This document shows, in pieces, positions 6,055 to 39,890 of a stretch of DNA of 41,090 bases. The notes beneath the pieces are model-generated. The model had not been told where the DNA came from and made no database searches. It saw nothing but the letters and a program-made list of their open reading frames with translations. Origin of the DNA: Syntrophomonadaceae bacterium (GTDB taxonomy: Bacteria; Bacillota; Dethiobacteria; DTU022); assembly GCA_003567725.1 (NCBI GenBank), contig PWYU01000101.1, positions 1 through 41,090 of the forward strand, given 5' to 3'. Both the position numbers and the translations under genes were made by a program. Within the stretch, counting starts at the first letter, position 1. The number at the start of each line of letters is the position of its first letter.

Positions 6055-6330
6055 TAAGCCACAGGGAACGCTTCCACCGTTTTTCCTTCGGCCTTAAAGC
6101 TACGCTTGAAGAGATGTTCGAACCGCTTCCTGTGCCACCGCTGATCATTTAACAAGGACAATAGGCTGAGTAGTCACAAAAAATCTTATCAACTCAACTA
6201 TATTTAGTTGCGGTTCCCTGCAGAAGTAAACCTTGCCCGCTGACCGTTTAGACTAAAACCACATCGGCTTAGCTTCAGCAGGTTTTACTTGCTCATGACG
6301 GCATAGGCTGTCTGGTTACAAAATAGTTGC
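6055..6330. repeat. Long composite copy of the dispersed intergenic repeat
   Basis: The left part reads TAAGCCACAGGGAACGCTTC and continues to ATCATTTAACAAGGACAAT followed by AGGCTGAGTAGTCA (to about 6174). A second module starts at 6208 with TTGCGGTTCCCTGC and includes TTGCCCGCT. The same two modules, in the same order and with the same 46-base distance between AACAAGGACAAT and TTGCGG, occur at 39690-39890, so they belong to one element. No protein is encoded. The short stretch from here to the M20 stop at 6404 shows nothing recognisable. Confidence 0.7.
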
Positions 6331-7633: not shown

Positions 7634-7720
7634 TAGCCTGCACCTTACCTTCTTTCTTTGATTGGTTATTTCTGCTCTTTTACAAATAGTGATAAAAGGG
7701 GTATTTTTATTTTTAGCCCG

Positions 7721-7917
7721 CTAAGCCACGGGGACGGTTCCATCGTCTTCCCTTCGGCCTACGCTACGCTTCGGAACACTCGAACCGTCCCCATGAGCAG
7801 ACTTCGGTGCTTTGGTTTCCCGCCGCACCGCTGCCCAAGTTACGGGGTTCTGACTTTTATCCCGGCGGGCTTGTCTCCCGCTGAACGCCCCAGCTTTCGT
7901 TGGGCATACGAGTAGTT
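7721..7917. repeat. GGGGACGGTTC palindromic repeat copy
   Basis: GGGGACGGTTC (7730-7740) and GAACCGTCCCC (7782-7792) form a perfect 11-bp inverted repeat around a CTTCGGCC-rich loop. The left flank GCCCGCTAAGCCAC is shared with the copy at 31755, and the right end GAGTAGTTA (7909-7917) matches the terminal sequence of other copies. A short frame runs through it but is only the repeat translated. Palindromes of this type resemble REP-like elements, but no REP-associated transposase is encoded here. Confidence 0.65.
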
Positions 7918-7930
7918 ACTATATAGTTGT

Positions 7931-8353: not shown

Positions 8354-9634
8354 ATGGCTTTTACGGTAAAAAAAGCTCTTGAAAAAGGATTCTTTAATAA
8401 CTGCCGGTTATTGACCGGTGAGGTAGGTTTAACTAACAGCATTAAGTGGGTTAACATCCTTGAGATCCTGGATGATCTAAGCCATGTTGATAAAGGAGAA
8501 TTCCTGATCACCACTGCATATGGTTTTGATATTAGCAGCGAAAAGAAACAGCTAGAAATGCTTAATTTTTTTGCCGAAAGGAAATTGGCGGCAATCGCTA
8601 TCCAAACAGGGCACTACATCAAGAATATACCACCTTCTTTTATAAATTATGCTAAACAGCTGAAGCTGCCATTAATTGAAATTCCTCCCGAAGTTAGCTT
8701 TAAAGATTTAACCAGGGCTTTAATGAATGAACTTCTTCATTATGAGCTCGCTGAAGCCAGTACCAACCTTTCTGAATCCCAGGAGCATATTATTTCGAGA
8801 ATAAAAGACATGAATCTTTTGTGGAATAACCTGGCAGAAAGTGAACATGTAAGCCGCTATCATGATGAGTTGAGGTACTATAGCATTAATCCTCTACAGG
8901 TTTTTCAAATTCTTCTAATCAAGGTTTCGCCAGCCCATACAGATCAGATATCAACGCCTGTGGAATATAATTTAAATTATAGCACCTTTGTAACACTGAC
9001 CAGCTATAGGTTATTAACTCAAAAGCATATCCCTTTTTTAATCGGGCCTTTAGACCAGCACATTCCACTATTAGTCCAATTAAGGCAAACTGAAGCTAAA
9101 GAAAAAGATGCAGGTCAACCGCTATATGAAGAGCTAAATCAAGAGTTGAATCTGCTGTTACCGGATCAAACGCTTTTTATTGGAGCAAGCAATGTCCATC
9201 ATGACATCAAGGAATTCAAAACTGCTTTAAATGAAGCGGCAAAAGCCCTGCAGGCCGCCCAACTGGGCCTGATCGATAACATGAACCTGGTAGCATACCA
9301 AAACTTAGGGCTATACCGCCTGCTTATGGAAATAAAAAATCTTAAAACCCTTTATGAGCTTTATGGTGAAACTATCGCTCCTTTAATCGAATACGATCAG
9401 CGCTGCAAAGGAGATTTGCTGCAAACTATGCAGGTTTTCTTGAAACATATGAGCATAAAAAAAGCGGCCCAGATTCTTTTCATTCACCGCCACACCATGC
9501 GCTACAGGCTGGACCAGGTTGACAAATTAACCGGCTACAATCCCCTTGACCCCGCAGACGCTCTGCAGTTAAACCTGGGGTTGCACGTTTATCACTATCT
9601 TAAAACCCATAATTTGCTGCGAGAACCGCTGTAA
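8354..9634 (+). CDS. PucR-family transcriptional regulator
   Basis: A 426-residue cytoplasmic DNA-binding protein. The N-terminal 120 residues match the PucR N-terminal domain (FTVKKALEKGFFNNCRLLTGEVGL, then GEFLITTAYGFD and IAIQTGHYIKNIP). A middle GGDEF-like part follows, and the C-terminus is the PucR-type helix-turn-helix: LLQTMQVFLKHMSIKKAAQ with HRHTMRYRLDQVDKLTG. Family members sense purines, amino acids or other nitrogen compounds and activate nearby catabolic genes. A TTG at 8336 could also start it, but the ATG at 8354 has GGTGA at a proper distance. The divergent M20 peptidase is the obvious candidate target. The stop codon lies within the first bases of a repeat copy. Confidence 0.85.
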   Translation: MAFTVKKALEKGFFNNCRLLTGEVGLTNSIKWVNILEILDDLSHVDKGEFLITTAYGFDISSEKKQLEMLNFFAERKLAAIAIQTGHYIKNIPPSFINYAKQLKLPLIEIPPEVSFKDLTRALMNELLHYELAEASTNLSESQEHIISRIKDMNLLWNNLAESEHVSRYHDELRYYSINPLQVFQILLIKVSPAHTDQISTPVEYNLNYSTFVTLTSYRLLTQKHIPFLIGPLDQHIPLLVQLRQTEAKEKDAGQPLYEELNQELNLLLPDQTLFIGASNVHHDIKEFKTALNEAAKALQAAQLGLIDNMNLVAYQNLGLYRLLMEIKNLKTLYELYGETIAPLIEYDQRCKGDLLQTMQVFLKHMSIKKAAQILFIHRHTMRYRLDQVDKLTGYNPLDPADALQLNLGLHVYHYLKTHNLLREPL

Positions 9635-9705
9635 GCCACAGGGGACGTTCGAACCGTGCCCATGGCGCCACTTACCATTCAACAAGGACAACAGGCTGAG
9701 CAGCT
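9632..9705. repeat. Dispersed repeat copy overlapping the PucR-like stop codon
   Basis: The copy starts at the stop codon itself: TAAGCCACAGGGGACGTTCG, then CCCATGGCGCCACTTACC and AACAAGGACAACAGGCTGAG. It matches the copies at 6055, 31002, 31761 and 39690. The hairpin part is shortened to GTTCGAAC. The rest of the gap to 9883 shows no gene. Confidence 0.75.
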
Positions 9706-9883
9706 ACCCCCGTTTAATTTAAAACTGCTCTTTATATATTCCAACCCGGGCCGACCAGAGCCGCACATATTTAATTTCAAGTGATTGCTTGGCCTCTTTT
9801 TACATTATTTATAACCGGGCCTGAGGCGTAACTTGCTGAACAGTAAATAATATTAATCATTTATTCAGAAAATAAGGCTTAAA

Positions 9884-20991: not shown

Positions 20992-21035
20992 CCTTTACAC
21001 CCGCTTTACCCTTTCACCCGAAGGGGTTCAGCGTG

Positions 21036-21190
21036 CTCTCAGGCAGGTCTCCTGGCTCGTGTTCACTGTGCTTCTCTGCCTTCCCGGTTTAAAAACCAGT
21101 GGCTGAAAGAGAAACACCTCCCACTTACAGTGGCGGGACCGCGCCGGTTTTTCACCGGCTTCCCTTTTTAAGTCTTTTGACACCTGATAA
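21036..21190 (-). ncRNA. Cobalamin (AdoCbl) riboswitch
   Basis: Read on the minus strand, the segment has the conserved core of cobalamin riboswitches: AAAGGGAAGCCGGTG, a closing AACCGGCGCGGTCCCGCC and ACTGTAAG, then GCCACTGG with GGGAAGGC, and the B12 box GCCAGGAGACCTGCC (complement of 21042-21056). The P1 stem can form from TCAGG (complement of 21183-21187) and CCTGA (complement of 21039-21043). Binding of adenosylcobalamin should favour the downstream terminator and shut off the whole btuF-to-dph6-like operon. Confidence 0.95.
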
Positions 21191-21217
21191 ACCTTTATTA
21201 AATTATCAATCGCTGCT

Positions 21218-30969: not shown

Positions 30970-31452
30970 TCATGGCTTCAAAATTTGTAACTACTCAAGC
31001 CTAAGCCACAGGGGGCGATTATCATTCAACAAAGACAATAGGTTGAGTAATTATCAAAATTTTATTATAGTAGCCGGTATAAAGGGCCCCGGCCGGGTTA
31101 TGGGCAGGAACCCGGTCCTTTACAATTAGCGCGGTAACCGGAGCATGTGCATGTTTGTTAAATCAGATGTCATGCCCAATGCAAAGCCCCACCGTAATAT
31201 TAAGCTTGGTATTGTTATCTTTTAAAGCCTTTTACAAAAAGCTACTCAAAGAGTTTCATAGCCCATTTCCCGGCTAAAGAGAATCAATTCTTCCACCCGG
31301 GTTTTTTTCATGTAATACTCTGCTTCTATCAAAGAAGCTGCCCGGTGAATAATCCAGTCACTCTCTTCGTATAACTCAACAGCGCCTTCAGAAATATTCA
31401 GGCAATCTTTATCCTCAGAGCACTCGCTTTTTTTACATAGATCACACTGCAA
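30970..31452 (-). pseudogene. Decayed DUF1847 gene
   Basis: The 5' part (31246-31452, TTG start after AGGTGA) encodes 68 residues starting MQCDLCKKSECSEDKDC and ending FSREMGYETL, the cysteine-rich start of DUF1847 proteins. A TGA then replaces the usual glycine codon; VAFCKRL follows and a TAA. After a deletion and in another frame the complement reads NITVGLCIGHDI, a [20 protein letters not shown], then [19 protein letters not shown], the family's typical end. The middle of the protein, perhaps 80 residues, is missing. The intact family probably binds metal; here it is broken in at least four ways. The short 5' frame could still be translated but would lack most of the domain. Confidence 0.75.
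30978..31062. mobile_element. 67-bp MITE-like element with a 9-bp target-site duplication
   Basis: The element spans 30987-31053. Its ends, TAACTACTCAAGCCTA and (complement of) TAGGTTGAGTAATTA, are imperfect inverted repeats. The core has AAGCCACAGGGGGCG and ATCATTCAACAAAGACAA. TCAAAATTT occurs on both sides (30978-30986 and 31054-31062). Removing the element and one copy of the repeat restores the frame YYNKILKP-stop at the end of the DUF1847 relic. It is a shortened derivative of the window's larger repeats. A transposase that moves it was not found here. The rest of the gap 30854-31245 is the hutU upstream region and the relic. Confidence 0.75.
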
Positions 31453-32006
31453 ATCTTCACCTGCTTTGCTTTTTTAGTACTTCCATATACAGTCCTTTTT
31501 TCCTTCAATGCTTTCTGCTGAGCCACTGCCGGGCTGCTGATTAAAATAGCTGCAATGAACACTATACTCACAGATCATCCAGGCCTATATTGCAGCAGCT
31601 TCAGTTATTTAACTAGATTCACCGCTCATAACGGTAACCAGGCCGTTAAAATATAGTTGCAGCCAGCTTGAAGGAAGGGTAAATATGATTTACAATGGTA
31701 AAGTTAGGATTATTACCTTGTATTTAATACCATAAAGGTAACTACTCAGGCCTAGCCCGCTAAGCCACAGGGGACGGTTATCATTCAACAAGGACTAGAG
31801 GCTGAAGTTGCCCTTAAGAATTAACCAGGCGCTTACTGTGGTTACAGTCGAGCCGTCCCGGCAGGCACTGCCAGGCTGCTTTACTTTTCGGTGTAGTAGA
31901 TTTATAATTGCAACCTGTTAAACCCGGTTCATTAATAAACAAAGCTTTCATAACCTTATAGCTGGTATTACAAAGCTATGACTTAAAAGAAACTGAGGGA
32001 GCAGTT
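31453..32006. repeat. Gene-free region with two repeat copies
   Basis: At 31513-31600 is a copy of the CTGCTCAGCC-type repeat: TCTGCTGAGCCACTGCCGGG and CTGCTGATTAAAA, with GCTGCAAT (31549-31556) and ATTGCAGC (31589-31596) as internal arms. At 31739-31810 is a copy of the TAACTACTCAGGCC type with AAGCCACAGGGGACGG and ATCATTCAACAAGGAC; its right end is degenerate. A further scrap, GGCACTGCCAGGCTGC, starts near 31866. The promoter of the exporter gene at 32007 must lie to the right end but is not clear. No gene was seen. Confidence 0.65.
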
Positions 32007-39689: not shown

Positions 39690-39890
39690 CGCACGGACGG
39701 TTCCACCGTCTATGAGTCGGCCTTAGAGCTACCTTTTAAGACCATCCCCATGGCGCCGCTTATCATTTAACAAGGACAATAGACAAAGTTATTACTTTAT
39801 ATTTTAAAAACTCAGCCATCTTCACTTGCGGTTGCCTGCTAAAGGAAACTGTGCCCGCTTCAGTTTTTTTCAGCAAGTTCTACATATCAT
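39690..39890. repeat. Long composite copy of the dispersed repeat
   Basis: Order: ACGGACGGTTCCACCGTC, CATCCCCATGGCGCCGC, TTATCATTTAACAAGGACAA, then TTGCGGTTGCCTGC at 39826 and the hairpin arms around TGCCCGCTT. The distance from AACAAGGACAAT to TTGCGG equals that in the copy at 6055-6330 (46 bases). The remaining gap (39556-39689 and 39891-40133) has no gene; a GCAGGTTATTATAAGC motif near 39578 resembles 931-945. Confidence 0.7.

What the first reader, a model, noticed from the sequence alone, without database searches (positions are those of the whole stretch)
30978..31062. Non-autonomous element with a perfect 9-bp target-site duplication, at the end of a DUF1847 relic
The sequence shows TCAAAATTT on both sides of a 67-bp segment with TAACTACTCA-type inverted ends. 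Excision in silico restores YYNKILKP-stop, the natural end of the DUF1847 frame, which shows direction: the element went into the gene. Related copies lie in at least four other gaps, so the family has been active. Element length, ends and 9-bp duplication are typical of MITEs moved in trans by a transposase; which one is not known.
Basis: seen in the sequence. Interest (0 to 1): 0.65.

Follow-up and report, generated by a model that had tools for sequence, protein, structure and literature searches.

The report
IS66-type MITE ending a DUF1847 pseudogene
A 68-base hitchhiking DNA element, one of roughly 40 copies with both ends in this uncultured bacterium's genome, jumped into the last codons of a now-decayed gene, and its ends suggest it was moved by an IS66-family transposase that the assembled genome does not contain.

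Summary
The element is 30987-31054 (68 bp) and its target duplication is 8 bp (CAAAATTT), not 9; the ninth matching T is the element's own mutated last base. Of 41 paired-end places in the own genome, 14 have a perfect 8-bp duplication (shuffled mean 0.025, maximum 1). Four relatives carry DUF1847 without the element, and joining the window's flanks gives the normal protein end (YYNKILKP-stop). Other lesions broke the gene; the element only changes its last residues. The unknown transposase is most likely IS66 family, ISBst12-type: GTAACTACTCAG ends plus an 8-bp duplication match IS66 elements in the same order (end motif at 13 of 17 IS66 loci, 1 of 15 controls) and ISDge4, an IS66 element seen transposing in the literature. 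No IS66 gene is in the own assembly. The 68-bp copy is an internal-deletion form of a ~145-bp element whose hairpin interior also sits inside an unrelated MITE family (ends ACTACAGCGAAA, 4-bp duplication), so the families are mosaics. Otherwise it is an ordinary kind of element: a new MITE family with its mobiliser inferred.

The parts
30987..31054 (+). 68-bp MITE copy, short form (internal-deletion derivative of the ~145-bp family form)
   Evidence: aligns to the 75-76-bp copies and to both ends of the 145-bp copies
30979..30986 (.). left copy of the 8-bp target-site duplication CAAAATTT
31055..31062 (.). right copy of the 8-bp target-site duplication CAAAATTT
30987..31002 (+). left terminal inverted repeat GTAACTACTCAAGCCT (family GTAACTACTCAGGCMT)
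   Evidence: outer part shared with IS66 ends in relatives
31038..31054 (-). right terminal inverted repeat, read on minus ATAATTACTCAACCTAT (family GTAACTACTCAGCCTAT)
31002..31020 (+). remnant of the left side of the inner hairpin module (TAAGCCACAGGGGGCGATT; family TAAGCCACAGGGGACGGTT); the rest of the module is deleted
30973..31465 (-). DUF1847 (PF08901) pseudogene, with in-frame stops, an internal deletion of about 155 bp with frameshift, and the element a few codons before the natural stop; upstream limit approximate
31738..31805 (+). second short-form copy; right end degenerate, no duplication seen
6055..6177 (+). long-form copy with intact right end and no recognisable left end
7714..7919 (+). 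mosaic copy: left arm remnant plus hairpin module, then sequence matching Rfam group-II-D1D4-4, ending GAGTAGTTAC
9632..9707 (+). partial copy (part of the module plus right arm)
39695..39795 (+). degenerate copy (75.7% over 101 bp)

Best explanation
The segment is a MITE. A DDE transposase of the IS66 family (ISBst12-type, single ORF) recognised its GTAACTACTCAG ends in trans and joined it to a staggered cut of 8 bp inside the last codons of a DUF1847 gene; repair of the gaps gave the CAAAATTT duplication. Shown: ends, 8-bp duplication across the family, orthologues without the element, restored gene end, IS66 elements in the same order with the same end motif, one of them with the same duplication length. 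Inferred: that an IS66 enzyme moved this copy, since none is in the assembled genome and no movement was observed. The 68-bp form arose from a ~145-bp form by internal deletion (read from the alignment of copies).
For: 41 paired-end places, 14 perfect 8-bp duplications versus shuffled mean 0.025, none at lengths 4-7 or 9-12. Orthologous DUF1847 without the element in G009, G011, G006 and G008, with matching C-termini; DUF1847 identity by Pfam. IS66 transposase loci in relatives: 19 occurrences of GTAA[CT]T[AG]CTCAG (at most one mismatch) at 13 of 17 loci versus 0.58 expected; control loci 1 of 15; the tested IS66 protein from G011 hits PF03050, E 3.3e-31. In relative G065 (L101) an internally deleted IS66 of 1015 bp has ends GTAACTGCTCAG and a perfect 8-bp duplication AAAAAATA, and a 165-bp derivative has AAATAAAC. 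ISDge4, IS66 family/ISBst12 group, transposed in the laboratory with ends GTGACTACTCAGCA/GTAACTGCTCAGCA and an 8-bp repeat (PMC12898284).
Against: No PF03050 match and no match to the G011 IS66 protein in the own assembly, so the enzyme is lost, unassembled or was never resident. IS66 ends in relatives share mainly the outer 12-17 bp with the MITE, and no IS66 containing this MITE's interior was found. The G011 and G051 IS66 copies show no duplication.
Confidence: 0.85

Rival explanations
1. The segment is a MITE as described, but moved by a transposase of another family that also makes 8-bp duplications and happens to have similar ends.
For: Several IS families make 8-bp duplications (background knowledge); no IS66 gene is in the own assembly.
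Against: The end motif marks 13 of 17 IS66 loci in the order but 1 of 15 control loci, and ISDge4 has the same ends (PMC12898284).
Confidence: 0.09
2. The segment is a REP/REPIN-type repeat moved by a RAYT (Y1 tyrosine transposase); the direct repeat is chance.
For: The own genome has three Y1_Tnp genes, two flanked by inverted GGGACGGTTC motifs, and the family's interior contains GGGGACGGTTC.
Against: The 8-bp duplications are far beyond chance, and Y1 enzymes do not make target duplications (established knowledge). In the RAYT loci the motif lies between short arms that could pair, whereas in the MITE it forms the stem of a long predicted hairpin.
Confidence: 0.03
3. The repeat is a regulatory or structural RNA or terminator inherited in place, not a mobile element.
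For: The long form has a strong predicted fold (-69.8 kcal/mol).
Against: 8-bp duplications, element-free orthologous sites, unrelated flanks, deletion derivatives, and no Rfam family for this segment.
Confidence: 0.02

Closest known systems
IS66 family, ISBst12 group (e.g. ISDge4 of Deinococcus geothermalis, PMC12898284)
   Same: Terminal sequence GTRACTRCTCAG and 8-bp target duplication
   Different: No transposase gene; complete copies 55-158 bp; interior not recognisable as IS66 coding sequence
165-bp IS66 deletion derivative in relative G065 (L101:2851-3015)
   Same: MITE-sized, GTAACTGCTCAG ends, perfect 8-bp duplication
   Different: Its ends and interior match the neighbouring IS66 copy; the window family's interior is a hairpin module of other origin
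Bacterial MITEs such as MITEPsy1 (PMC3189936)
   Same: Short, no ORF, inverted ends, duplication, thought to be moved by another element's transposase
   Different: MITEPsy1 is probably IS5-derived with 4-bp CTAG/YTAA duplications; its mobility was shown experimentally
REP/REPIN repeats (PMC3116915, PMC3733652)
   Same: Multicopy short repeats with a hairpin-forming interior
   Different: REPINs are tied to RAYTs, which do not make target duplications (background knowledge); this family has inverted ends and 8-bp duplications

Membership tests
MITE | short element with terminal inverted repeats | tested here: met
MITE | target-site duplication of fixed length | tested here: met
   8 bp, 14 of 41 perfect, shuffled mean 0.025
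MITE | no transposase gene | tested here: met
   68-158 bp; no room for a transposase
MITE | multicopy, dispersed, with element-free orthologous sites | tested here: met
   the empty site was tested at the DUF1847 locus only
MITE | observed transposition | not testable with these tools
   needs an experiment
IS66-derived (ISBst12-type) non-autonomous element | ends matching IS66 ends | tested here: met
   PMC12898284
IS66-derived (ISBst12-type) non-autonomous element | 8-bp duplication as in IS66 | tested here: met
   PMC12898284
IS66-derived (ISBst12-type) non-autonomous element | parental IS66 with the same subterminal sequence in the same genome | tested here: not met
   no PF03050 in the own assembly, which is an incomplete draft; it is therefore classed as a MITE with IS66-type ends, not as a proven deletion product of a particular IS66
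REPIN/RAYT | no target duplication | tested here: not met
   8-bp duplications
REPIN/RAYT | RAYT gene flanked by the same repeat | tested here: inconclusive
   GGGACGGTTC motif flanks two Y1_Tnp genes but in a different structural context

The most novel reading that the evidence does not exclude
The ~95-bp hairpin inside the long form is a separate module exchanged between unrelated MITE families. It sits between IS66-type ends (8-bp duplication) and, in the same genome, between ACTACAGCGAAA ends (4-bp CTAG/CTAA/TTAA-type duplication). IS66-type copies with one loop subtype are closer in the module to the other family (86.5%) than to their own sister copies with the other loop (75.9%), while the arms of the two families are unrelated (about 28%) and those of the sisters similar (80-86%). 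Two transposase systems would thus spread one hairpin cargo across an order of bacteria.
Probability: 0.55. Interest if true: 0.55.

Novelty: new member of a known kind. Interest (0 to 1): 0.38.

Why it matters
It fixes the duplication length and names the likely mobiliser of an abundant repeat in a poorly known lineage, with sibling genomes giving the empty site. If the module exchange holds, MITEs of different transposase families can share and spread one hairpin, which would make shared interiors unsafe for classifying MITEs and raises the question of what the hairpin does for its carriers.

Tried and rejected
REP/RAYT origin: three Y1_Tnp genes are in the genome and two carry a shared GGGACGGTTC motif; rejected for the element because of the 8-bp duplications. 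A 9-bp duplication: rejected, no family member has a perfect one. An autonomous copy in the own genome: end-motif positions, read by eye, show no inverted pair about 1-3 kb apart, and PF03050 gave nothing. Plasmid search: no match. Scan of genome contigs with a strict pattern: one hit, a Syntrophomonadaceae MAG. A duplication in the 'half elements' that begin at AAGCCAC: none beyond chance. Paper searches for IS66- or ISBst12-derived MITEs and for MITEs sharing interiors across families showed no precedent in the hits I looked at; subscription papers are not held and most hits were judged by title and abstract. A first multiple alignment of the DUF1847 region had G006 and G008 in the wrong orientation; the protein comparison replaced it for those two.

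Full report
Observation. A family view changes the boundaries. Searching the own genome (2.39 Mb, 127 contigs) with the segment gave 40 matches and with a related copy 52; the end motif GTAACTACTCAG with at most one mismatch occurs 96 times against 10 for the reversed control. Pairing the ends gave 41 places, 55 to 211 bp; a few of these are alternative or chance pairings, for example L031 twice, L135 and the 211-bp window pair. In the well-preserved copies the element runs GTAAC...GTTAC.

Duplication test. Perfect flank repeats: 14 of 41 at length 8 (shuffled pairs: mean 0.025, maximum 1), and none at 4-7 or 9-12. Position-wise identity is 71-85% at the eight duplicated positions and 7-41% at the positions just outside. 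The element family therefore inserts with an 8-bp duplication.

Direction of the event. The region is the 3' end of a DUF1847 gene on the minus strand. Relatives G009, G011, G006 and G008 (same genus) carry the gene as one open frame without the element; the G009 protein matches PF08901, E 1.1e-51. Joining the window flanks in a script gives ...[11 protein letters not shown]-stop, and the relatives end YYHKLLQS, YYRKILGQ, YYRKVLGP and YYKRLIGG. With the element the frame ends [13 protein letters not shown]-stop. So the element went into the gene, but it changed only the last residues. The gene is a relic because of two in-frame stops and a deletion of about 155 bp relative to G009; the order of these events is not known.

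Which transposase. Ends beginning GTAA plus an 8-bp duplication are features I associate with IS66 from background knowledge. The own assembly holds no IS66 transposase. Relatives do. At 17 loci fetched with IS66 queries, the motif GTAA[CT]T[AG]CTCAG occurs 19 times at 13 loci (0.58 expected); 15 control loci have one hit. In G011, same genus, a decayed IS66 of about 1.44 kb is bounded by GTAACTGCTTAGGCATAAGCA and GTAACTGCACAGGCCTTAGCA. In G036 IS66 pieces at contig ends carry GTAACTACTCACCC, GTAACTGCTCAGGC and GTTACTACTCAGGCATAACC. In G065 an internally deleted IS66 of 1015 bp has ends GTAACTGCTCAG and duplication AAAAAATA, and a 165-bp derivative has AAATAAAC, so the birth of MITE-sized derivatives from this IS group is visible within the order. 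PMC12898284 reports ISDge4, classed in the ISBst12 group of IS66, transposing in the laboratory with ends GTGACTACTCAGCA/GTAACTGCTCAGCA and repeat CCTCGATG. I conclude IS66/ISBst12-type mobilisation, as inference.

Anatomy of the family. The ~145-bp form has left arm GTAACTACTCAGGCMTAGCCCGCT, a hairpin AAGCCACAGGGGACGGTTC...GAACCGTCCCCATGGCGCC, and right arm GCTTATCATTCAACAAGGGCAATAGGCTGAGTAGTTAC. Shorter forms (99, 91, 76, 68, 55 bp) lack parts of the interior. The window copy keeps both arms and the first ~18 bases of the hairpin. The long form is predicted to fold at -69.8 kcal/mol, the window copy at -14.2.

Mosaic interior. In the order-wide search many genomes matched only the hairpin. 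Some of those hairpins lie between different ends, [N]ACTACAGCGAAA...TTTCGCTGTAGT, with a 4-bp duplication (CTAG, CTAA, TTAA, ATAG): 14 of 22 perfect at the best of four offsets tried, shuffled mean 3.2, maximum 9. Ten of these 22 places are in the own genome. In an alignment of 16 IS66-type and 7 second-type copies, the module identity between IS66-type copies of one loop subtype and the second family is 0.865, higher than between the two loop subtypes of the IS66-type family (0.759), while the arms give 0.28 versus 0.80-0.86. The subtypes were defined by the loop itself, so the size of the difference is partly built in; the sharing of the module between unrelated arms is not. This supports exchange of the hairpin between MITE families; mechanism unknown.

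Spread. The 145-bp query matches 33 of 71 genomes of the order, many of them by the hairpin only. The best near-full-length matches outside the own genome are in the own genus (G002) and in one other genus of the family (G042, G046, G048). A named relative is Syntrophomonadaceae MAG CSSed162cmB_344.

Limits. Draft assemblies break at mobile elements, so absence of IS66 in the own genome is weak evidence. No activity was observed. ISfinder was not available. Copy numbers are lower bounds.

Noticed in passing
own-genome loci L123:401, L153:479 (minus), L156:1837, L200:1500, L205:1500 (minus), L214:1500 and about ten more: About 15 copies start at AAGCCACAGGGG (left arm absent), most with a right arm; no target duplication beyond chance. 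A recurrent sharp left boundary that random truncation does not explain.
   Followed up: partly
window 7714-7919: Copy whose right half matches Rfam RF02003 group-II-D1D4-4 (64 bits, 7764-7883 minus) and ends GAGTAGTTAC; a similar tail occurs in L158:491-656 and L062. Either the Rfam model catches a piece of this repeat or a group II intron fragment was fused to the MITE end.
   Followed up: no
L010:1085 and 1903; L011:1087 and 1923: Two of three Y1_Tnp (RAYT-like) genes of the own genome are flanked by inverted (A/G)GGGACGGTTCTT-like motifs between short arms that could pair; the 11-mer GGGGACGGTTC also occurs in the MITE hairpin.
   Followed up: partly
L136:3659-3802, L249, L250, L251, L256 (own genome): Second MITE family with ends ACTACAGCGAAA and 4-bp duplication, carrying the same hairpin module.
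   Followed up: yes
window 21025-21202 minus: Cobalamin riboswitch (RF00174, 122.5 bits) beside what look like cobalamin synthesis and transport genes.
   Followed up: no
L031:1487-1645: Nested ends: GTAACTGCCCAGCC directly before a complete 145-bp copy; the outer pair has a perfect 8-bp duplication TTATTTTT, so one end was extended or two copies met.
   Followed up: no
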